The translations under genes and the position numbers were made by a program. Below the pieces are notes generated by a model. That model was not told the origin of the DNA. It made no database searches and was given only the letters and a program-made list of their open reading frames with translations. Of a stretch of 35,562 bases of DNA, positions 23,761-32,777 are shown piece after piece (position 1 is the first letter of the stretch; every line of letters begins with the position of its first letter). This DNA comes from an uncultured Porphyromonadaceae bacterium (lineage in GTDB: Bacteria; Bacteroidota; Bacteroidia; Bacteroidales; Muribaculaceae): the NCBI GenBank assembly GCA_947176935.1, contig CAMWSP010000003.1, positions 1 to 35,562 on the forward strand. Direction: 5' to 3'.

Positions 23761-26313
23761 TTAGCCGCACTTGCTGGTTCCGCAGGAGGTGCAAACAAGG
23801 CAGCCTTCCTGGTAGACGAGGGTTTCCTGGCCGCAGTTAGGACACTTATGGCCGCTGGCCGAGGTGCCGCTGGGCACATATTTTTTCAGCGCGCGTTCAA
23901 CGCCGGCTTTCCAGGTGTTGATGCTTTCGGAGTTGAGCTGCAGGCCGTCGACCATCTTGATTACCTGGTCGATGGGCATGCGGTAGCGGAGCACACCGGA
24001 AATCAGCTTGGCGTAGTTCCAGAATTCGGGGTTGAACTTGTCGGAGAGGCCTTCGATGGTTGTTTTGTGGCCGCGCTTGTTGACGAACTGGAAGTCGTAG
24101 CGCTTGTTGCCGTCTTCATCGATGGTCTTGATGATGTTGCCTCGGGTAACCGACTTGGGGAGGAACAGGCCGTCTTCATCGTCGTTGAGGCCGGTGAAGA
24201 TTTCGTAGGGGCGACCGTCGACCAGGCCGATAAAGGCAATCCATTTTTCCTTGTTGTTCTGGAAGCGCACAACGTCGGCTTCGAGCGACACGGGGCGCTT
24301 TTGCAGCAGCGGGCCTGCGCCTTCGGCTTTTTTCTTGTCTTCTTTGTTTTTGGGGGTGATGGCGTTGAGCACACCGGAGCGCGAGCCGTCGCGATAAACC
24401 GTGCAGCCCTTGCATCCGGCTTTCCATGCGCGCAGGTAGAGCTGATTGACGGTTTCCTCCGAAATGTTGGCCGGCAGGTTGATAGTTACGGAAATGGAGT
24501 GGTCGACCCACTTCTGCACGGCGCCCTGCATGTTGACTTTTTCGAGCCAGTCGATTTCGTTGGCGCTGGCGCCGGCATAGGGCGAGCGGGCCACCAGTTC
24601 GGCGATTTCTTCGGCGGTCATCTTGGCGGAGGGTTCGATGCCCTGCACCTTCATCCAGTCGAGGAACTTGGGGTGGTAAACGATGTATTCTTCGAATGCG
24701 TCGCCCGATTCGTCGACGTAATCGACGTGGACGTCCTTATCGTTGGGGTTCACCTTGCGGCGGCGCAGGTAGACGGGCATGAACACCGGCTCGATGCCCG
24801 ACGAGGTGCGGGTCATCAGCGACACGGTGCCGGTCGGGGCTATGGTGAGGCAGGCGATGTTGCGTCGGCCGGAGCGCTCCATGCGTTCCTTCAGGGCGGG
24901 GTCGGCGTCGAACAGACGGTTGATGAACGGGTTATTCTTTTCGCGTTCGGAGTCGTAAACCTCGAATTTGCCGCGCTCCTCGGCCATGGTGACCGACGAA
25001 TTGAAGGCGGCCAGGGCAACCGCGCGGTGAACGCTGACGCTCATGTCGGTGGCTTGGGCGGTGCCGTATTTCAGGCCCAGGGCGGCAATCATGTCGCCCT
25101 CGGCGGTGGTGCCCAGTCCGGTTCGGCGGCCCATGAGGGTGCGGGAGCGGATTTTTTCCCAGAGGTGGCGTTCGGAGTGCTTCACGTCGGCATCTTCGGG
25201 GTCGGCGTCGATTTTGGCGAGTATGGCGTCGATTTTTTCGATTTCGAGGTCGATGAGGTCGTCCATGAGGCGCTGGGCCTTGGCGGCATGGTCGGCCAGG
25301 CGCTCGAAGTTGAAGCGGGCCTGAGGGGTGAAGGGGTTGTCGACGTAGCTGTAGAGGTTGATTGCCAGCAGGCGGCAGCTATCGTAGGGGCAGAGGGGAA
25401 TTTCGCCGCAGGGGTTGGTTGAGATGGTGCGGAAGCCGAGGTCGGCGTAGCAGTCGGGGAGCGATTCGCGGGTAATGGTGTCCCAGAACAGCACTCCCGG
25501 TTCGGCTGATTTCCAGGCGTTATGAACAATCTTGCCCCAGAGCTTGGCGGCGTCGGTTTCGCGGGTTACCTGCGGGTTGGGCGAGTCGACGGGGAACTGC
25601 TGGATGAAGGGAGTGGCGGCTTCGGCGCAGCGCATGAATTCGTCGGTTATGCGCACGCTGACGTTGGCGCCGGTGATTTTGCCTTCGGTGAGTTTGGCGT
25701 CGATGAAGGCTTCGGAGTCGGGGTGGACAATGGAGGTTGTGAGCATCAGCGCTCCGCGGCGGCCGTCCTGGGCCACCTCGCGTGTGGTGTTGCTATATCG
25801 CTCCATGAAGGGGACGAGGCCGGTGGAGGTGAGGGCCGAGTTCTTGACGGGCATGCCTTTGGGGCGGAGCTGGCTCAGGTCGTGGCCTACGCCGCCGCGG
25901 CGCTTCATGAGTTGCACCTGCTCTTCGTCGAGCTTGAGAATGGCGCCGTAGCTGTCGGCGGGGTCCTCGAGGCCGATGACGAAGCAGTTGCTGAGCGATA
26001 CGGTCTGAAACGGGTTGCCGATGCCCGACATGGGCGAACCCTGCGGAATCAGATAGCGGAAATCCTTGAGGAGGGAGTAGATTTCCTCTTCCGACATCGG
26101 ATTGGGATATTTGGCTTCCATGCGGGCGAATTCAGAGGCAAGACGCCGGTGCATATCGTCGGGAGTGAGTTCGTAGATGTTGCCGAAGCTGTCTTTGAGG
26201 GCATATTTCGAGGCCCAGACGCGGGCGGCGAGTTCGTCGCCGTTGAAATAATTGAGCGTTGCGGAGTGAACTTTCTCCGGGTCAACGGGTATGTGTGATG
26301 ATTGAGGTTCCAT
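23761..26313 (-). CDS. nrdJ: Class II, adenosylcobalamin-dependent ribonucleotide reductase
   Basis: Reduces ribonucleotides to deoxyribonucleotides using a B12-derived radical, independent of oxygen. It has 850 residues from the ATG at 26311-26313. The opening region YALKDSFGNIYELTPDDMHR is typical. Active-site cysteines are visible in TVSLSNCFVIG and in the radical-site motif STNPCGEIPL. LMTRTSSGIEPVF and TINLPANISEETV follow, and the C-terminus carries CPNCGQET and CLVCTSCGTSKCG (zinc-ribbon-like plus redox Cys). The next upstream in-frame start (26334) would place seven residues inside the promoter, so it was rejected. The -7 box ends only 8 nt before the ATG, and no cobalamin riboswitch can fit in such a leader. 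It is divergent from the coiled-coil operon. Confidence 0.95.
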   Translation of the reverse strand: MEPQSSHIPVDPEKVHSATLNYFNGDELAARVWASKYALKDSFGNIYELTPDDMHRRLASEFARMEAKYPNPMSEEEIYSLLKDFRYLIPQGSPMSGIGNPFQTVSLSNCFVIGLEDPADSYGAILKLDEEQVQLMKRRGGVGHDLSQLRPKGMPVKNSALTSTGLVPFMERYSNTTREVAQDGRRGALMLTTSIVHPDSEAFIDAKLTEGKITGANVSVRITDEFMRCAEAATPFIQQFPVDSPNPQVTRETDAAKLWGKIVHNAWKSAEPGVLFWDTITRESLPDCYADLGFRTISTNPCGEIPLCPYDSCRLLAINLYSYVDNPFTPQARFNFERLADHAAKAQRLMDDLIDLEIEKIDAILAKIDADPEDADVKHSERHLWEKIRSRTLMGRRTGLGTTAEGDMIAALGLKYGTAQATDMSVSVHRAVALAAFNSSVTMAEERGKFEVYDSEREKNNPFINRLFDADPALKERMERSGRRNIACLTIAPTGTVSLMTRTSSGIEPVFMPVYLRRRKVNPNDKDVHVDYVDESGDAFEEYIVYHPKFLDWMKVQGIEPSAKMTAEEIAELVARSPYAGASANEIDWLEKVNMQGAVQKWVDHSISVTINLPANISEETVNQLYLRAWKAGCKGCTVYRDGSRSGVLNAITPKNKEDKKKAEGAGPLLQKRPVSLEADVVRFQNNKEKWIAFIGLVDGRPYEIFTGLNDDEDGLFLPKSVTRGNIIKTIDEDGNKRYDFQFVNKRGHKTTIEGLSDKFNPEFWNYAKLISGVLRYRMPIDQVIKMVDGLQLNSESINTWKAGVERALKKYVPSGTSASGHKCPNCGQETLVYQEGCLVCTSCGTSKCG

Positions 26314-26321
26314 AATTGGCG

Positions 26322-26352
26322 CAAATTTACGCAAAAAATATTATTTACTCAA
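26322..26352 (-). promoter_or_regulatory. nrdJ promoter, near-leaderless
   Basis: On the minus strand TTG (26350-26352), 20 bases, then TAAATTTG (26322-26329). Only 8 bases (CGCCAATT) separate the box from the nrdJ ATG, so the transcript should have almost no 5' leader. The box lies inside the 22-bp inverted repeat. Confidence 0.75.
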
Positions 26353-26370
26353 TTTTTTTCACTAAATTTG
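26341..26370 (+). promoter_or_regulatory. Probable promoter of the coiled-coil/mgtC/antiporter operon
   Basis: TAAATTTG at 26363-26370 is an exact -7 box, 8 bases from the ATG at 26379. The -33 position is weak: only TTA (26341-26343) lies at the right distance (19 bases), compared with a clear TTG on the nrdJ side. Confidence 0.55.
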
Positions 26371-26378
26371 CGCCAATT

Positions 26379-27293
26379 ATGGAAGAGAACAAAAAACCGA
26401 ATTTCGCGCCGCTGATTGCCGGCGCCGTGGTGGCCGTAGTAGTGATCGGCACCTTAGTGTGGCTTTTCATCAGCCAGAAGCAGCAGGCCGAAGAGGCGAT
26501 GCTCAAAGTTCAGGAACTCGAGCTGGCCAACGAGCAGTTGCAGCTGTCGAACGAATACGACGAGCTGTCGGCCTCGTTCGTGCAACACGAAGGGCAGATG
26601 GTGCTGTTTAATAACGACAGCATCCGCGCCGAGTATGAGGCCGCCAAAAACAAGGTTGAGGAACTGCGACAGGAACTCAAGCAGCGCGACAAGCTCTCGC
26701 AGCAGCGCATAGCCGAACTGCAGAAGGAAATCGCCACGCTCAAGGAAATCATGCGCCACTACGTTGAGCAAATCAACGAGCTCAACCAGCAGAACCAGGA
26801 GCTGCGCGAAAAGAACGAAACCCTGGAGCAGAGCAACCGCCAGCTGAGCAACCGGGTGGCCGAAACGACGTCGAAAAACCAGGTGCTGACCCAGCGCATG
26901 GAGCTGGCCGAGAAGCTCAACGTGAGCAGCGTGAGCCTGCAGGCGCTGAACTCCAAGGGCAAGACCGAAAAGAAGGTTAACAAAGCCAAGCAGCTGGCCG
27001 TTACGTTCACCATTCCGCAGAACAATTCGACTCCCGTTGGGCGCAAAACCATTTATCTGCGCATAACCACTCCCGAAGGCAACCTGCTGAAAGATAACGG
27101 CATCACCTTCTCCTTCGAGGGCACGACCCTGGAGGCTACCGCCAAGAAAGACGTTGAGTATGAAGGCAACGAGATTCCGGGAGTTACAATCTACTGGAAC
27201 AACAACGCCATGCTGACCCCGGGCAGCTACCGCGTGGAACTGTTTGCCGACAACTACCGCCTGGCCTCGCGCAATTTTGAACTCAGCAAATGA
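26379..27293 (+). CDS. Single-pass membrane protein with long coiled coil, unknown function
   Basis: It has 304 residues. The start at 26379 (MEENKKPNF) is preferred to an in-frame start at 26316, because the extra 21 residues would be encoded by the promoter region. There is one TM segment at about 13-35 (LIAGAVVAVVVIGTLVWLFI). A heptad-rich Glu/Gln/Leu coiled coil follows at about 36-190 (EELRQELKQRDKLSQQRIAE and similar). The C-terminal domain (about 205-304) is beta-rich: LAVTFTIPQNNSTPVGRKTI, then VTIYWNNNAMLTPGSYRVEL. Topology is probably N-in with the coiled coil in the periplasm. Such proteins are common as conserved hypotheticals in Bacteroidetes. The stop overlaps the mgtC start (ATGA). 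An envelope-sensing or scaffold role is only suggested by the ion-transport neighbours. Confidence 0.88.
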   Translation: MEENKKPNFAPLIAGAVVAVVVIGTLVWLFISQKQQAEEAMLKVQELELANEQLQLSNEYDELSASFVQHEGQMVLFNNDSIRAEYEAAKNKVEELRQELKQRDKLSQQRIAELQKEIATLKEIMRHYVEQINELNQQNQELREKNETLEQSNRQLSNRVAETTSKNQVLTQRMELAEKLNVSSVSLQALNSKGKTEKKVNKAKQLAVTFTIPQNNSTPVGRKTIYLRITTPEGNLLKDNGITFSFEGTTLEATAKKDVEYEGNEIPGVTIYWNNNAMLTPGSYRVELFADNYRLASRNFELSK

Positions 27294-28003
27294 TTAACGC
27301 ATTCTGGACCGAGCTGACGGCCACCGAGGTGACCACTGCCCAGGCATTGTTTAAGCTCTGCCTGGCAATGATTCTCGGCGCCAGCGTGGGCTACGAACGC
27401 AAGCGCAAGGGGCAGCCGGCCGGTTTGCGCACTTTTTCGCTGATAGCCATGGGCGCGTGCCTGGCCATGCTGGTGAGCATCTATGTTTGCCAGGAATATG
27501 TGGGGCTGAAAAACGGCGACCCCGGGCGCATAGCGGCCCAGGTGATTTCCGGCATCGGTTTTCTGGGCGCCGGCGCCATAATCCAGGCCAAGGGCTCGGT
27601 GCGCGGCCTGACCACCGCCGCCGGCATCTGGATGTCGTCGATTATCGGTCTGGCCGTCGGGGTGGGGCTATATCTGCTGTCGGTTTGCGCAACGCTGCTG
27701 ATTCTGTTTATCCTGGTGCAGCTCGAAAACGTTGAGCGTTGGCTGGAAGTTGGCTCCGAAAGCCGCATTATCCGCCTTAAAGTGAGCGGTATATGCACCG
27801 AGCTGGAGCCATTTCGCGAGATTCTCAGGCGCCACCACGGTCATCTGGTCAACACCTATGTGGACTATGACTACGCGGCGCAGACCACCCGCCTGAATCT
27901 GGTGGTTCTGCTGCGCGAAAACACCGACTATCCCGGCCTGTTTACCGAACTGTCGGAGCCCTATCCGACCGAGAGCATTTCCATTGCCAACCAGTTGGCA
28001 TAA
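27290..28003 (+). CDS. MgtC/SapB family membrane protein
   Basis: It has 237 residues. The SapB/MgtC membrane domain is visible: CLAMILGASVGYERKRKGQP with the conserved GxERxxxG-x-AGLRT region, then VISGIGFLGAGAIIQAKGSV and RGLTTAAGIWMSSIIGLAVG. A soluble ACT-like C-terminal domain (about 155-237) follows. MgtC proteins affect growth in low magnesium and modulate other transport systems such as F-type ATPase in pathogens; here the role is unproven. It is translationally coupled to the upstream coiled-coil gene and 33 nt upstream of the antiporter, which is consistent with cation homeostasis. Confidence 0.92.
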   Translation: MINAFWTELTATEVTTAQALFKLCLAMILGASVGYERKRKGQPAGLRTFSLIAMGACLAMLVSIYVCQEYVGLKNGDPGRIAAQVISGIGFLGAGAIIQAKGSVRGLTTAAGIWMSSIIGLAVGVGLYLLSVCATLLILFILVQLENVERWLEVGSESRIIRLKVSGICTELEPFREILRRHHGHLVNTYVDYDYAAQTTRLNLVVLLRENTDYPGLFTELSEPYPTESISIANQLA

Positions 28004-28036: not shown

Positions 28037-30250
28037 ATGATTGAATCGCTGATTTCAGATCTTGCGTATATAATGCTGCTTGCAGCGATAGTTACGCTGC
28101 TGTTCAAGTGGATAAAGCAGCCGGTGGTGCTGGGCTATATAGTGGCCGGCTTCCTGGCCAGCCCGAACTTCGAGCCGCTGCCGTCGCTGACAACCGCCGA
28201 AAACATTGACTTTTGGGCGGAGCTCGGCATAGTGATTCTGCTGTTCACCCTGGGCCTGGAATTCAGCTTCAAGAAACTGATGGGATGCGGCGGCTCGGCT
28301 ATCATAACCGCCATGGTGGTGATTTTCGGTATGCTCTGCACCGGTTTCAGCATCGGCCATCTGCTCGGGTTCAGCCATATCAACAGCATTTTCCTTGGCG
28401 GCATGATTTCCATGCAGTCAACAACCATTATTATCAAGGCATTGGGCGACCTGGGGCTGCGCCATAAAAAATTCTCATCGCAGGTGCTCGGAGTGCTGAT
28501 TGTCGAGGACCTGTTTGCGGTGTTGCTCATGGTTGTGCTGTCGTCGATAGCCGTGAATAACTCGGTCCAGGGCGGCGAGCTGCTGCTGAGCATGGCCAAA
28601 CTGGTGTTTTTCCTTGTTATCTGGTTCCTGGTGGGCACTTATGTGCTCCCGACCTTCCTCAACAAGGTGCGCCGGTTTCTCAACGACGAAACCCTGCTGG
28701 TTCTCAGCATGGGCCTCTGCCTGGGCATGGCGGTGTTCTCGGTTTATTGCGGCTTCTCGCTGGCTCTGGGCGCCTTCGTTATGGGTTCGATTCTTGCCGG
28801 AACGAGCTATGCCGAACGCATCGAGCATGTTCTCGGCCCGGTCAAGAACCTGTTTGGCGCGGTGTTCTTTATCAGCGTGGGCATGATGGTGAATCCGGGC
28901 GTCATAGCCGAATACTGGCGTCCGATTCTGCTGCTGTCGGCAGTGGTTGTTTGCGGCGGTCTGATTTTCGGCACCGGCGGCATGCTGCTGACCGGCCAGA
29001 CCCTGAAAGTTGCCTTGCAGAGCGGTTTCACCCTCACTCAAATCGGCGAATTCTCGTTTATCATCGCAACCCTCGGCACGAGCCTGGGTGTGCTCGATTC
29101 GTCGATGTATCCGATTATCGTGGCCGTTTCGGTAATCACTACTTTCACCACTCCCTACTTTATCCGTCTGGCCGACCCGACCTATAGCTTCGTGGCCGCC
29201 CATCTGCCCGAGCGGTGGAAATTTCTCATCGACCGCTATTCGACCAACAATGTCGAGGCCGGCAGCGAGTCGCGCCGCGTGTGGCAGGCGGTTCTCAAAC
29301 GCTACGCCTGGCGCATGTTGCTCTACAGCATCGTGCTCATAGCCATAGTGCTGGTTTCGTCGCTCTATGCGCGGCCGTTTATTTGCGGACTTATTCCGGG
29401 CTTCTGGGGCAGGCTGCTCAGCTGCGTCGTTACGCTCGGCGTTATGTCGCCCTTCCTGCTCGGCCTGACCTATCACTCCTCGCGCCGCTCGGAGCGCCAG
29501 CTGCTCATTGCCAACAACTCGCGGGCCCATGCGCCGCTGGTGGCCATGACTCTGGTTCGCCTGCTCATCTGCATTGCCTTTGTGGTCTACATTATCGGCA
29601 GCTACTTCGGCGTGTCGGCCGGCGTTATTTTCGGTGTGTCGCTGTTTGCGCTGTCGTTCGTGTTCGTGTCGCGCCGTGTTCGCCACCGCCTTGCGCGCAT
29701 CGAATCGCGCTTCCTCGATAATCTCAACGAGCGCGAACTGCGCCGCTCCGGCCAGAAGAATAACCTTGTGAGCAACATGCACCTGGCCTACGGAACAGTG
29801 GGCTATGACTTCCCCTTTGTGGGCGACCGCCTGAGTATAAGCAACGTTGGCCGCAAGTTCAACATCAACATCGCGTCAATTCAGCGCGGCGGCGAGGTGA
29901 TTCCGGTGCCCGGCGGCGACGAGCGCCTGTTTCCGGGCGATGTTGTGGGCGTTATCGGCACTGAAGAAAACATTTCCGCGTTCATGAACAGTCTGGAGCA
30001 GGGAAGCGAAGCCTCCTCGGCCGGCGGTCGTGGCGAAGAGGTGCGCTTTTCGTCGATTACTCTTTCGCCATCGTCGCCGCTGCCCGGCAAGACGCTCCGC
30101 GAGGCCGATTTGCGCAACCGCTACCACGCGCTGGTCGTTGCGCTTGAACGCGACGATTCGTTCGTTAAACTGAAGCCCGACGAGGCTTTCCGCGAGGGCG
30201 ACACGGTGTGGATCGTGGCTCAGCCGTCGGCCGCGCGCGCCCTTGCCTGA
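28037..30250 (+). CDS. CPA2-type cation:proton antiporter with C-terminal TrkA-C domains
   Basis: It has 737 residues. The N-terminal Na+/H+ exchanger-type domain (about 1-385) has many TM helices and the signature ELGIVILLFTLGLEFSFKKL. A second membrane block (about 415-560, four hydrophobic segments from WRMLLYSIVLIAIVLVSSLY) follows. Two TrkA-C/RCK_C-like modules close the protein: about 590-655 (PGGDERLFPGDVVGVIG) and 668-737 (SPLPGKTLREADLRNRYHAL, then FREGDTVWIV). I see no RCK_N nucleotide-binding (GxGxxG) domain, unlike KefB/KefC. It exchanges K+ or Na+ for H+ across the inner membrane; the ion is not decidable. It lies 33 nt after mgtC and 17 nt before the CotH-kinase gene. Confidence 0.9.
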   Translation: MIESLISDLAYIMLLAAIVTLLFKWIKQPVVLGYIVAGFLASPNFEPLPSLTTAENIDFWAELGIVILLFTLGLEFSFKKLMGCGGSAIITAMVVIFGMLCTGFSIGHLLGFSHINSIFLGGMISMQSTTIIIKALGDLGLRHKKFSSQVLGVLIVEDLFAVLLMVVLSSIAVNNSVQGGELLLSMAKLVFFLVIWFLVGTYVLPTFLNKVRRFLNDETLLVLSMGLCLGMAVFSVYCGFSLALGAFVMGSILAGTSYAERIEHVLGPVKNLFGAVFFISVGMMVNPGVIAEYWRPILLLSAVVVCGGLIFGTGGMLLTGQTLKVALQSGFTLTQIGEFSFIIATLGTSLGVLDSSMYPIIVAVSVITTFTTPYFIRLADPTYSFVAAHLPERWKFLIDRYSTNNVEAGSESRRVWQAVLKRYAWRMLLYSIVLIAIVLVSSLYARPFICGLIPGFWGRLLSCVVTLGVMSPFLLGLTYHSSRRSERQLLIANNSRAHAPLVAMTLVRLLICIAFVVYIIGSYFGVSAGVIFGVSLFALSFVFVSRRVRHRLARIESRFLDNLNERELRRSGQKNNLVSNMHLAYGTVGYDFPFVGDRLSISNVGRKFNINIASIQRGGEVIPVPGGDERLFPGDVVGVIGTEENISAFMNSLEQGSEASSAGGRGEEVRFSSITLSPSSPLPGKTLREADLRNRYHALVVALERDDSFVKLKPDEAFREGDTVWIVAQPSAARALA

Positions 30251-30267
30251 CCTACCCCCCTCTCTGT

Positions 30268-32220
30268 ATGAAAAATTTGAAGCGATATATCCTTGCTGTC
30301 CTCCTCCTTTCCGGGGCGGCAACCCTTGGCGCGCAAACCGATGACCCGAAGCTGACCGGCACACCCATAGGCACCTCGCGCGGCTATCAGTATGAAAACG
30401 GCGGCCGGGTGGTCAACAACATACAGCACTATGCCTTCGACGGCGACCTCAACACTTATTTCGCCACCGATGCGCGCTCCTACACCTGGGTGGGGCTCGA
30501 CCTGGGGCGCCCTCATGTGATTACCCGCGTGGGCTGGTCGCCGCGCAACGACGGCGTTGGCCCCCGACGGGTGCGCACCGGCGTTATCCAGGGCGCAAAT
30601 TCCGAGGATTTTCTTGACGCGCTGCCAATATACGTTATCGGTGAAGACGGAGTCATAGGGCGCATGAGCTATGCCGACGTTGACTGCTCGCGCGGCTTCC
30701 GCTATGTGCGCTTCGTCAGCACCGGCGACGCGCGCTGCAACATTGCCGAGCTTGAGTTCTACGGCCACGAGGGCGAGGGCGACGATTCCGGCCTGTATCG
30801 TCCGACCAACCTGCCAACGGTGGTGGTAAACACCGTTGACGCCCGGGAACCCTATGATAAAACACACGACATTGCGGCCAATATTTTGATTCTCAACGAC
30901 GATGGCATCAACGTTGCCGCTCCCGGAACCATTCGCGAGCGCGGCAACGGCTCGCGCCAGTTCCCGAAAAAGCCATGGCGCCTGAAGTTCGACCAGAAGC
31001 AAACGGTTCTCGACGCGCCCGCAAAGGCCAAAAAGTGGACCCTGATAAATAACTACGGCGATAAAACGCTGATGCGCAATATGCTTGCCTTTGAAATGGC
31101 CCGCTGCCTCGACATGCGCTATGTTTCTTATTGTCAGCCGGTCGACGTTATTCTCAACGGCGAATATAAAGGTTGCTATCAGCTTTGCGACCAGCAGGAG
31201 GTCAAGGCCGGACGCCTCGACATAACCGAAATGGATTCCACCGACATTTCCGGCGTGGAGCTGACCGGCGGCTATTTCCTGGAAATCGATGCCTATGCCA
31301 ACGAGGAGCCGGCCGGGTCGTGGTTCACCTCGCAGAACCGCATACCGGTGACCATCAAGTCGCCCGACAATGGCGGCACTCCCGAGCAGTTCAACTATAT
31401 CCGCTCCTATTTCAACAAGCTCGAAAGCCTGGTCTATTCATCGGATTTCACCAATCCGCTCACCGGCTACCGCTCCATTCTCGACGTTGAGTCGTTTCTG
31501 CAGCATTTCATAGTCGGCGAGCTCACCGGCAACACCGACACCTATTGGAGCACCTTTATGTATAAGGAGCGCAACGACCCGACTATCTACACCGGGCCGG
31601 TGTGGGACTTCGACCTCGGCTTCGACAACGACTACCGCACCTATCCCGTCAACCAGTATTCCACCTATCTGTTCAATCAGAGTTCCGCCTCGGCTGCCGA
31701 CAATATGAAGAACTTTGTGCGTCGCATAATCTACGGCGACCCGCAGATAGCCTCCGACATCAGCCGCCTGTGGTCGCTGGCGCGCAACGACCGCAACCTC
31801 ACGGCCGACGCCCTCACCGGCTATGCCGACTCGCTGGCCCTGGTGCTCGACCAATCGCAGCAGCTCAACTTCAAGCGCTGGCCCATACTCAGCCAGCAGG
31901 TCCACATGAATCCGCGTGCACTGGGCTCTTATGCCGCCGAGGTCAATGCGGTTAAGAACTTTATCCGCCAGCGGTTCAGCAAGCTCGACGTTCTGATGCA
32001 CTATGATCCCAATCTTTCCGCGCTCTGCGAGGTTGAGGAGAGCATGCCGGCAGTCAGCGTTTCCGACGGCATGATAACGGTTGGCGGCGGAGTCAGGTTT
32101 ACGGTGGCCGGCATTGACGGCACCATCCGCTTCAGCGGCTGCGGCACCACGCCGCGCCTGCCCCGCGGCCTCTACATCCTCACCGCCGGCTCCCTCACCC
32201 GCAAAATCAACTCGAGATGA
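30268..32220 (+). CDS. Secreted CotH-kinase family protein with F5/8C-like domain
   Basis: It has 650 residues from the ATG at 30268; the in-frame start at 30208 would put residues ahead of the signal peptide. The signal peptide is MKNLKRYILAVLLLSGAATL, then GAQ. A discoidin/F5-8C-like domain (about 30-165: HYAFDGDLNTYFATDARSYT, VGLDLGRPHVITRVGW) precedes the CotH kinase domain (about 190-540). That domain shows KKWTLINNYGDKTLMRNMLA, VDVILNGEYKGCYQLCDQQE and GPVWDFDLGFDND (W446, D447, D449), matching residues needed by spore-coat CotH kinase. The tail (LPRGLYILTAGSLTRKINSR) looks like a type IX sorting end. It is likely a surface protein kinase or carbohydrate-associated protein. The stop overlaps the next start (ATGA). 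Confidence 0.9.
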   Translation: MKNLKRYILAVLLLSGAATLGAQTDDPKLTGTPIGTSRGYQYENGGRVVNNIQHYAFDGDLNTYFATDARSYTWVGLDLGRPHVITRVGWSPRNDGVGPRRVRTGVIQGANSEDFLDALPIYVIGEDGVIGRMSYADVDCSRGFRYVRFVSTGDARCNIAELEFYGHEGEGDDSGLYRPTNLPTVVVNTVDAREPYDKTHDIAANILILNDDGINVAAPGTIRERGNGSRQFPKKPWRLKFDQKQTVLDAPAKAKKWTLINNYGDKTLMRNMLAFEMARCLDMRYVSYCQPVDVILNGEYKGCYQLCDQQEVKAGRLDITEMDSTDISGVELTGGYFLEIDAYANEEPAGSWFTSQNRIPVTIKSPDNGGTPEQFNYIRSYFNKLESLVYSSDFTNPLTGYRSILDVESFLQHFIVGELTGNTDTYWSTFMYKERNDPTIYTGPVWDFDLGFDNDYRTYPVNQYSTYLFNQSSASAADNMKNFVRRIIYGDPQIASDISRLWSLARNDRNLTADALTGYADSLALVLDQSQQLNFKRWPILSQQVHMNPRALGSYAAEVNAVKNFIRQRFSKLDVLMHYDPNLSALCEVEESMPAVSVSDGMITVGGGVRFTVAGIDGTIRFSGCGTTPRLPRGLYILTAGSLTRKINSR

Positions 32221-32777
32221 CTACTCCGAATTTTGCACAGCCTAAGACGAGCTATCGTAGCCTCTATGCTTTTCAGAAGGCAGAGGCTATCTATGACCTC
32301 ACTTACTTTTTCCTTTCCGGTCATGTTGCAAAAAGTGACCGAACTTACGACCAGATGCTTCAGGCGGCACGTTCAGGCAAGCAGAACATTGTTGAGGGAC
32401 GTGCGGATGCCGCTGCTTCGGTCGAAATGGAAATCAAACTTTATGGAGTGGCTCGCGGCAGCCTTCACGAGTTGCTCAATGATTATCTTGATTATATGCG
32501 GACTCGCAATATCCCTATATGGAAGCCTGGAGAAAATCCGCGCTTTAACAAATTACGCGAGGTTTGCAATACCCACAATGATGCTGCCTATTATTCCAGG
32601 TTGGCCCCGCGGCTCAATGATGAAGAGCTCTGCAACCTATTGGTTACCCTTATTCACCAAACTATTTCGATGATCGGGAAACTGATAGAGTTAGTCAAGG
32701 GCGACTTCTTGCGCAAAGGCGGCATCAAAGAGCAGATGCTCAAAGCCCGACTCGCTTACCGCAATGGCGAAAAATAG
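32217..32777 (+). CDS. Four-helix-bundle protein (S23/TIGR04258-like)
   Basis: It has 186 residues, helical and soluble. The N-terminal part resembles the S23-type four-helix-bundle family: SYRSLYAFQKAEAIYDLTYF, then DQMLQAARSGKQNIVEG, EMEIKLYGVARGSLHELLND. The C-terminal helix (LIHQTISMIGKLIELVKGDF) and the end GGIKEQMLKARLAYR fit the 'four helix bundle suffix' type. The function is not established; relatives occur in 23S rRNA intervening sequences and as accessory proteins of diversity-generating retroelements, but no reverse transcriptase is near. G+C is lower than in the gene before it: 26 and 24 of 60 in the lines at 32281 and 32461, against 33 and 42 in CotH lines. It may be an insertion that now overlaps the CotH stop by four bases. 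The TAG stop forms part of a 9-bp repeat array. Confidence 0.87.
   Translation: MTTPNFAQPKTSYRSLYAFQKAEAIYDLTYFFLSGHVAKSDRTYDQMLQAARSGKQNIVEGRADAAASVEMEIKLYGVARGSLHELLNDYLDYMRTRNIPIWKPGENPRFNKLREVCNTHNDAAYYSRLAPRLNDEELCNLLVTLIHQTISMIGKLIELVKGDFLRKGGIKEQMLKARLAYRNGEK

What the first reader, a model, noticed from the sequence alone, without database searches (positions are those of the whole stretch)
26308..26384. Perfect 22-bp inverted repeat containing two mirrored promoters and start codons
The arms 26308-26329 and 26363-26384 are exact reverse complements. Each holds a -7 box (TAAATTTG), 8 further bases, ATG and the codon GAA. nrdJ and the coiled-coil/mgtC/antiporter operon therefore share identical leader and first codons, and both mRNAs should be nearly leaderless, whereas other promoters here give leaders of about 20-80 nt. 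This could be one operator read from both sides, linking B12-dependent dNTP synthesis to an envelope/ion operon, or a duplication of a start region. The conserved first codons suggest selection at RNA level as well as DNA level.
Basis: partly seen in the sequence, partly recalled or inferred. Interest (0 to 1): 0.75.

Follow-up and report, generated by a model that had tools for sequence, protein, structure and literature searches.

The report
Back-to-back promoters with identical starts
Two neighbouring gut-bacterial genes that are read in opposite directions have start regions that are exact mirror copies; this looks like an ordinary pair of back-to-back promoters whose ends happen, or were copied, to match, and it led to the observation that such promoter pairs in this genus tend to sit a whole number of DNA turns apart.

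Summary
The repeat is real: arms 26308-26329 and 26363-26384 are exact 22-nt reverse complements, each with a TAAATTTG -7 box and a predicted leader of about 4 nt. No other copy lies within 3 mismatches in the 86%-complete genome. It is not a conserved operator. Two relatives have the same nrdJ | coiled-coil order; neither has the repeat, and 2 of 80 related loci have nrdJ within the held flank upstream. Short leaders are common here (34 sites against 2 control). The pair is best read as two overlapping back-to-back sigma-A-type promoters. Full arm identity exceeds what the shared consensus predicts (0 of 17,860 unpaired comparisons reach 22 nt), so a one-off template switch is possible but unproven. 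Wider result: divergent -7 boxes are frequent in the genus (227 sites with gaps 20-50, against 52 tandem), and their gaps cluster near 22, 32, 43, 53, 63 and 74 bp (about 10.5-bp period), over phased A/T tracts also seen at single promoters. The window pair (gap 33) fits this. Nine paper searches showed no report of it.

The parts
23761..26313 (-). nrdJ, adenosylcobalamin-dependent ribonucleotide reductase; start ATG at 26313
   Evidence: TIGR02504 538.7 bits against cut-off 399.95; PF02867
26308..26329 (-). nrdJ arm of the inverted repeat: -7 box, short leader, ATGGAA
26322..26329 (-). nrdJ -7 box TAAATTTG; predicted start of transcription about 26317 (4-nt leader)
   Evidence: sequence; box position from PMC9723704; not mapped experimentally
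26350..26352 (-). candidate -33 TTG of the nrdJ promoter, 20 bp upstream of its box
   Evidence: sequence; -33 TTTG consensus as quoted in PMC7366714
26330..26362 (.). 33-bp gap between the two boxes, with A/T tracts (AAAAAA 26333-26338, AATTTTTTT 26351-26359); shared upstream region of both promoters
   Evidence: gap lies in the 30-33 cluster
26363..26370 (+). coiled-coil gene -7 box TAAATTTG; predicted start about 26375 (4-nt leader); no TTG -33 motif in the gap on this strand
   Evidence: sequence
26363..26384 (+). coiled-coil arm of the inverted repeat
26379..27293 (+). membrane-anchored coiled-coil protein (anchor and coiled coil read from the sequence), 304 aa, no Pfam family
   Evidence: relatives in 292 of 397 family genomes
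27290..28003 (+). MgtC family protein
   Evidence: PF02308 140.9 bits
28037..30250 (+). CPA2-type cation:proton antiporter with TrkA_C domains
   Evidence: PF00999, PF02080

Best explanation
The repeat is a pair of ordinary back-to-back housekeeping (sigma-A-type) promoters. Each arm is a -7 box TAnnTTTGC followed by a very short leader and the start codon; the 33 bp between the boxes is upstream DNA used by both. The two RNA polymerase sites must overlap, so one bound enzyme should exclude the other (inferred). The boxes sit in a helical phase common to divergent pairs of the genus, because each promoter carries A/T tracts spaced by one helical turn and an A-then-T tract is its own reverse complement, so one array can serve both directions (tract phasing and gap clustering shown; function inferred). 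Identity of the arms beyond the shared consensus comes either from coincidence or from a single replication template switch that perfected an existing imperfect palindrome; this step is not resolved. There is no evidence for a repressor/activator operator.
For: 34 TANNTTTGC-N7-ATG sites in G000 against 2 for the reversed pattern; TANNTTTG-N6-10-ATG 160 against 40. nrdJ has a -7 box ending 7-9 nt before its ATG in 10 of 10 genus loci, with or without the coiled-coil neighbour (checked by eye; adjacency). Divergent boxes 20-50 bp apart: 227 sites in 11 genomes, 0 in the reversed-pattern control, 52 for the tandem orientation. Gaps: 148 listed sites, R=0.50 at 10.5 bp; 75 listed sites with gaps 51-81, best period 10.5 bp, R=0.42, 0 of 300 uniform draws as high; one site per homology cluster (95 from 140 fetched) R(10.5)=0.41, 0 of 2000. 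Single promoters show the same phased A/T tracts (99 sites, 0 of 2000 shifted sets). G003 has nearly the same nrdJ arm (TAAATTTGCGCTCATTATGGAA) with no coiled-coil gene beside it, and the G002 coiled-coil leader contains both TTTGCGCCA and ATTATGGAA, one 17-bp deletion and one substitution away from the window arm.
Against: No transcript ends were mapped. The coiled-coil promoter lacks a TTG at -33. The complete 22-nt identity is rarer than consensus sharing predicts: 0 of 17,860 unpaired comparisons, and G000 has 46 counted divergent box pairs, so chance alone expects well under 0.01 per genome; something more may be at work. Tandem pairs show weak periodicity too (n=52, R=0.29, nominal p about 0.015), so part of the phasing may be general A/T periodicity of intergenic DNA. 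Phasing is not universal: in other families G399, G419 and G398 show it, G397 and G412 do not, G406 is unclear.
Confidence: 0.72

Rival explanations
1. A quasipalindrome correction: during replication the polymerase switched template across the imperfect hairpin formed by the two facing promoters and copied about 16 nt of one arm (TAAATTTGCGCCAATT) onto the other, making the palindrome perfect in one step. This is an origin for the identity and is compatible with the best explanation.
For: Facing promoters are imperfect palindromes by nature; G002 shows one (27 nt, 74%). The coiled-coil box is TAACTTTGC in G002, G003, G006 and G005 but TAAATTTGC, the nrdJ box of G000 and G003, in the window. 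Identity is rarer than expected. Template switching at quasipalindromes makes them more perfect (PMC7202029, abstract and introduction).
Against: No general excess: in 95 divergent pairs arms are no more alike within a pair than between pairs (leader positions 1-7: 2.35 against 2.19 of 7). The direction of copying is unclear, since the G002 coiled-coil leader already holds GCGCCAA. No closer relative with the same order was available.
Confidence: 0.42
2. Coincidence: two short-leader promoters drawn from a narrow consensus (box, C, short leader ending ATT-ATG, GAA) became identical independently, for example by one deletion and one substitution in the coiled-coil leader.
For: Two unrelated G000 sites already share a 7-of-7 leader, AGGTGAT. 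One other divergent pair (L269, G006) has a 20-nt identical run. The G002 leader needs one 17-bp deletion and one substitution. Adenine at -3 is favoured in Flavobacterium starts (PMC6847099, passages), which fits the shared ATT-ATG.
Against: Model probability 7e-5 for the nine variable positions; 0 of 17,860 unpaired arm comparisons reach 22 nt.
Confidence: 0.4
3. One operator read from both sides: a regulator binds the arms and couples B12-dependent dNTP synthesis to the MgtC/antiporter operon.
For: Perfect symmetry and unique occurrence in the genome.
Against: Absent in both relatives with the same gene order; the gene order occurs in 3 of 10 genus nrdJ loci and nrdJ is found upstream in 2 of 80 related loci; no NrdR-box-like site in the window at up to 3 mismatches (consensus recalled). 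An operator with one target would be unique, so the lack of further copies alone is weak evidence.
Confidence: 0.08
4. Selection at RNA level: both mRNAs need the same leader and first codon.
For: nrdJ leaders are short in 10 of 10 genus loci.
Against: Leader letters differ freely among relatives (nrdJ: GCTCATT, AGGCAA, GGGCAA, GCCATT, CAACGTT; coiled coil: 7 to 31 nt). The first codons follow the two proteins' own N-termini.
Confidence: 0.05

Closest known systems
Bacteroidetes sigma-ABfr promoters (-7 TAnnTTTG, -33 TTTG)
   Same: Both boxes match TAnnTTTG; nrdJ also has a TTG 20 bp upstream
   Different: The coiled-coil promoter lacks the -33 motif; leaders are predicted at about 4 nt, against 23 nt as the commonest length and about 3.7% under 10 nt in B. 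thetaiotaomicron (PMC7366714, passages)
Prokaryotic bidirectional promoters (Warman, Grainger, Wade)
   Same: Pseudo-symmetric DNA, divergent mRNAs, mutually exclusive polymerase binding expected
   Different: Those share one -10 element, with starts 18 bp and also 10 or 23 bp apart (PMC12825309, passages); here there are two separate boxes and the predicted starts are 58 bp apart
Helically phased A-tracts aligned with -10 and start in Synechocystis
   Same: A/T tracts in helical phase with the promoter box, genome-wide (PMC9825172, passages)
   Different: Here in Bacteroidales -7 promoters, and visible as clustered gaps between divergent boxes; 'divergent' has 0 hits in that paper
Quasipalindrome template-switch products
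   Same: An imperfect inverted repeat made more perfect (PMC7202029, abstract and introduction)
   Different: The event is inferred, not observed; no general excess at such promoters

Membership tests
Bacteroidetes sigma-ABfr promoter | -7 box TAnnTTTG | tested here: met
   both arms
Bacteroidetes sigma-ABfr promoter | -33 TTTG/TTG about 20 bp upstream | tested here: inconclusive
   TTG at 26350-26352 for nrdJ; none for the coiled-coil gene
Bacteroidetes sigma-ABfr promoter | mapped transcription start just downstream of the box | not testable with these tools
   no RNA data
Bidirectional promoter sharing a -10 element | one element used in both directions, starts 10/18/23 bp apart | tested here: not met
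   separate boxes 33 bp apart; predicted starts 26317 and 26375
Regulator operator | conserved in relatives with the same gene order | tested here: not met
Regulator operator | protein bound in vitro or in vivo | not testable with these tools
   no binding data
Helically phased A-tract promoters | A/T tracts at helical spacing in phase with the box | tested here: met
   for the class, not for this site alone:
Quasipalindrome template-switch product | imperfect ancestral repeat and one-step replacement of one arm | tested here: inconclusive
   imperfect repeat in G002; step not seen

The most novel reading that the evidence does not exclude
In this genus, and in some other Bacteroidales families, divergent genes are driven by two -7 boxes set on one shared array of helically phased A/T tracts. 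The array is orientation-neutral, so the boxes are held a near-whole number of helical turns apart (gaps about 22, 32, 43, 53, 63, 74 bp). This would be a two-way promoter platform whose output balance depends on twist and supercoiling. The window pair, with gap 33 against 21 for the same gene pair in G002, is one member whose arms were perfected by template switching.
Probability: 0.4. Interest if true: 0.65.

Novelty: new variant of a known kind. Interest (0 to 1): 0.45.

Why it matters
For the repeat itself: it shows how two ordinary promoters can look like a designed operator, and it removes an unsupported regulatory link between dNTP synthesis and ion transport. For the wider result: Bacteroidales are major gut bacteria whose promoters are known mainly by the -7 box. 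A helical rule for upstream A/T tracts and for the spacing of divergent promoters would help promoter prediction and design, would tie expression of many gene pairs to DNA supercoiling, and can be tested directly with existing B. thetaiotaomicron start-site maps.

Tried and rejected
Cobalamin riboswitch or other known RNA: no Rfam family reached its gathering score in the window; the predicted nrdJ leader is too short to hold one. NrdR box: none at up to 3 mismatches (consensus recalled). Dispersed repeat or mobile element: no further copies. General homogenisation of arms at divergent promoters: not seen. RNA hairpin: the predicted starts lie inside the arms, so neither mRNA holds both arms (inference).

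Errors and repairs: one search printed the wrong ends for loci on the minus strand and was redone. One search looked at the wrong end of L006, L007, L008 and L011; redone. One search crashed after its first table and was redone.

Rows dropped before counts: two sites identical to another copy in the same genome (G003:C9:204, G004:C17:45093). Listings are capped: 73 + 75 = 148 of 227 gap-20-50 sites (G000, G008-G010 and one G007 site not listed), 75 of 204 gap-51-81 sites, 140 of 148 fetched. A few sites of the 51-81 list (G003:C33:30862, G004:C5:9495, G004:C7:80150, G005:C4:70566) share a box with a shorter pair or span a third box and were kept. Of 30 fetched G000 short-leader loci, the two window arms and one match inside mgtC (27482) were left out. 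The 87 'other Muribaculaceae' single promoters come from loci around one orthologous gene and are not fully independent. Matches are box patterns, not mapped promoters.
Full report
OBSERVATION. The two 22-nt arms exist as stated and are exact reverse complements. They hold TAAATTTG, eight bases, ATG and GAA. No other copy lies in the window or, within 3 mismatches, in the 2.04-Mb, 86%-complete genome. The genes are a B12-dependent ribonucleotide reductase (TIGR02504) on the minus strand and, on the plus strand, a coiled-coil membrane protein without Pfam family, an MgtC protein and a CPA2 antiporter.

ARE SHORT LEADERS SPECIAL? The Flavobacterium psychrophilum start map puts TAnnTTTG at -12 to -5 (PMC9723704, passages). 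On that basis both leaders would be about 4 nt. This is common in this genus: 34 sites TANNTTTGC-N7-ATG in the genome against 2 for the reversed pattern, and 160 against 40 with 6-10 bases after TTTG. In all 10 genus loci with nrdJ (10 of 11 genomes) a TANNTTTG ends 7-9 nt before the ATG (read by eye), whatever lies upstream. The coiled-coil leader varies: 7 nt after TTTGC in the window and in G003, and 24, 26 and 31 nt in G002, G006 and G005. In B. thetaiotaomicron about 3.7% of leaders are under 10 nt (PMC7366714, passages), so the class is a minority there.

RELATIVES. The coiled-coil gene lies beside nrdJ in 3 of 10 genus loci: the window, G002 and G005. G002 has an imperfect repeat (27 nt, 74%) and G005 none. 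The ATGGAA in each arm is inherited with the protein: MEPQ in nrdJ and MEEN/MEDN in the coiled-coil gene, also where the genes are apart.

HOW UNUSUAL IS THE IDENTITY? A position model built from the same-geometry sites gives about 7e-5 for agreement at all nine variable positions; yet two unrelated genes in the same genome already share a 7-of-7 leader. Among arms of 95 divergent pairs, compared across pairs, 0 of 17,860 comparisons reach a 22-nt run, 1 reaches 21 and 3 reach 20. Within pairs the longest run is 20 (L269, G006), and on average arms of a pair are no more alike than arms of different pairs. So arm identity is not a general property of such pairs, and this case is rarer than chance would easily give. 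Two origins remain. One is template switching on an imperfect palindrome, a known mechanism (PMC7202029, abstract and introduction); the coiled-coil box is TAACTTTGC in four relatives and the nrdJ-like TAAATTTGC in the window. The other is coincidence: one 17-bp deletion and one substitution turn the G002 coiled-coil leader into the window arm. I cannot separate them.

THE WIDER PATTERN. Searching for facing boxes (GCAAANNTA-N-TANNTTTGC) gave 227 sites with gaps of 20-50 bp in 11 genus genomes (8-34 each, 21 in the window's genome), 0 for the reversed pattern, and 52 for the tandem orientation. The gaps are clustered: in 148 listed sites at 21-24, 30-33 and 41-48, with none at 26-29. The clustering was noticed in the listing of G001-G004; G005-G007 served as a second set (R 0.58 and 0.43 at 10.5 bp). 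Gaps of 51-81 bp, searched afterwards, peak at 51-55, 62-65 and 71-77 with best period 10.5 bp (75 listed of 204; 0 of 300 uniform draws as high). Keeping one site per homology cluster (95 from 140) leaves R(10.5)=0.41, with 0 of 2000 uniform draws reaching the observed maximum. Within clusters some gaps differ by about one turn (for example 33, 33, 22; 41, 32); clusters were joined on one similar flanking protein, so not all are true orthologues. For nrdJ | coiled coil the gap is 33 in the window and 21 in G002 (L178).

CAUSE OF THE PATTERN. Upstream of the boxes, A and T frequencies alternate with the helical period: T peaks near -4, -15, -24 and -36, A peaks near -9, -17, -28 and -38. Promoters without a facing box show the same in G+C content (99 sites; 0 of 2000 sets with random 0-10 bp shifts reach it; also when -19 to -27 is left out, and for -30 to -70 alone, 0 of 1000 each). 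An A-then-T tract is its own reverse complement, so one phased array fits promoters in both directions; boxes at its two ends then fall a near-whole number of turns apart. That is an inference. Phased A-tracts aligned with promoters were described genome-wide in Synechocystis (PMC9825172, passages). Limits: tandem pairs also show weak periodicity (R 0.29, nominal p 0.015). In other Bacteroidales families G399 (46 sites, R 0.52), G419 (17, R 0.65) and G398 (11, R 0.59) show the phasing, G406 (12, R 0.43) is unclear, and G397 (24 listed of 25, R 0.11) and G412 (11, R 0.04) do not; 29 other listed sites give R 0.29.

LITERATURE. Nine searches gave no paper whose listing reports phased spacing of divergent promoters or phased A-tracts at Bacteroidetes promoters. 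I read listings and the passages named, not whole texts, and the library lacks most subscription journals. The key paper on bidirectional promoters (Warman 2021) is not held; its successor says such promoters share a -10 element with starts 10, 18 or 23 bp apart (PMC12825309, passages), which does not fit this pair.

VERDICT. The repeat is real but is best read as an ordinary, non-conserved pair of overlapping back-to-back promoters with short leaders. Its perfect arms are a local accident, by copying or by chance. The phased arrangement of divergent promoters is the more interesting result, and existing start-site maps can test it.

Noticed in passing
G000-G010; window 26322-26370: Gaps between divergent -7 boxes cluster at about one-turn (10.5 bp) steps from 22 to 74 bp, and facing boxes far outnumber tandem ones.
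   Followed up: yes
L043-L122 and L123-L152, upstream of single TANNTTTGC boxes: Single promoters carry helically phased A/T tracts out to beyond -30.
   Followed up: partly
L269 (G006:C8:9385-9432): A second divergent pair with a 20-nt identical run on both arms, TTTCGTAACTTTGCGCGATA.
   Followed up: no
L003-L012, nrdJ starts: nrdJ is predicted near-leaderless in 10 of 10 genus loci although its neighbours differ.
   Followed up: partly
window 30208-32220 and 32217-32777: A CotH-kinase/F5-F8 type C protein and a four-helix-bundle (23S IVP-like) protein with a suffix domain follow the antiporter gene.
   Followed up: no
L006 2277-2308 (G006, upstream of nrdJ): A perfect 15-nt inverted repeat with a 2-nt loop, TTTCAAAATTTTTAG / CTAAAAATTTTGAAA, lies upstream of nrdJ in a relative with a different neighbour.
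   Followed up: no
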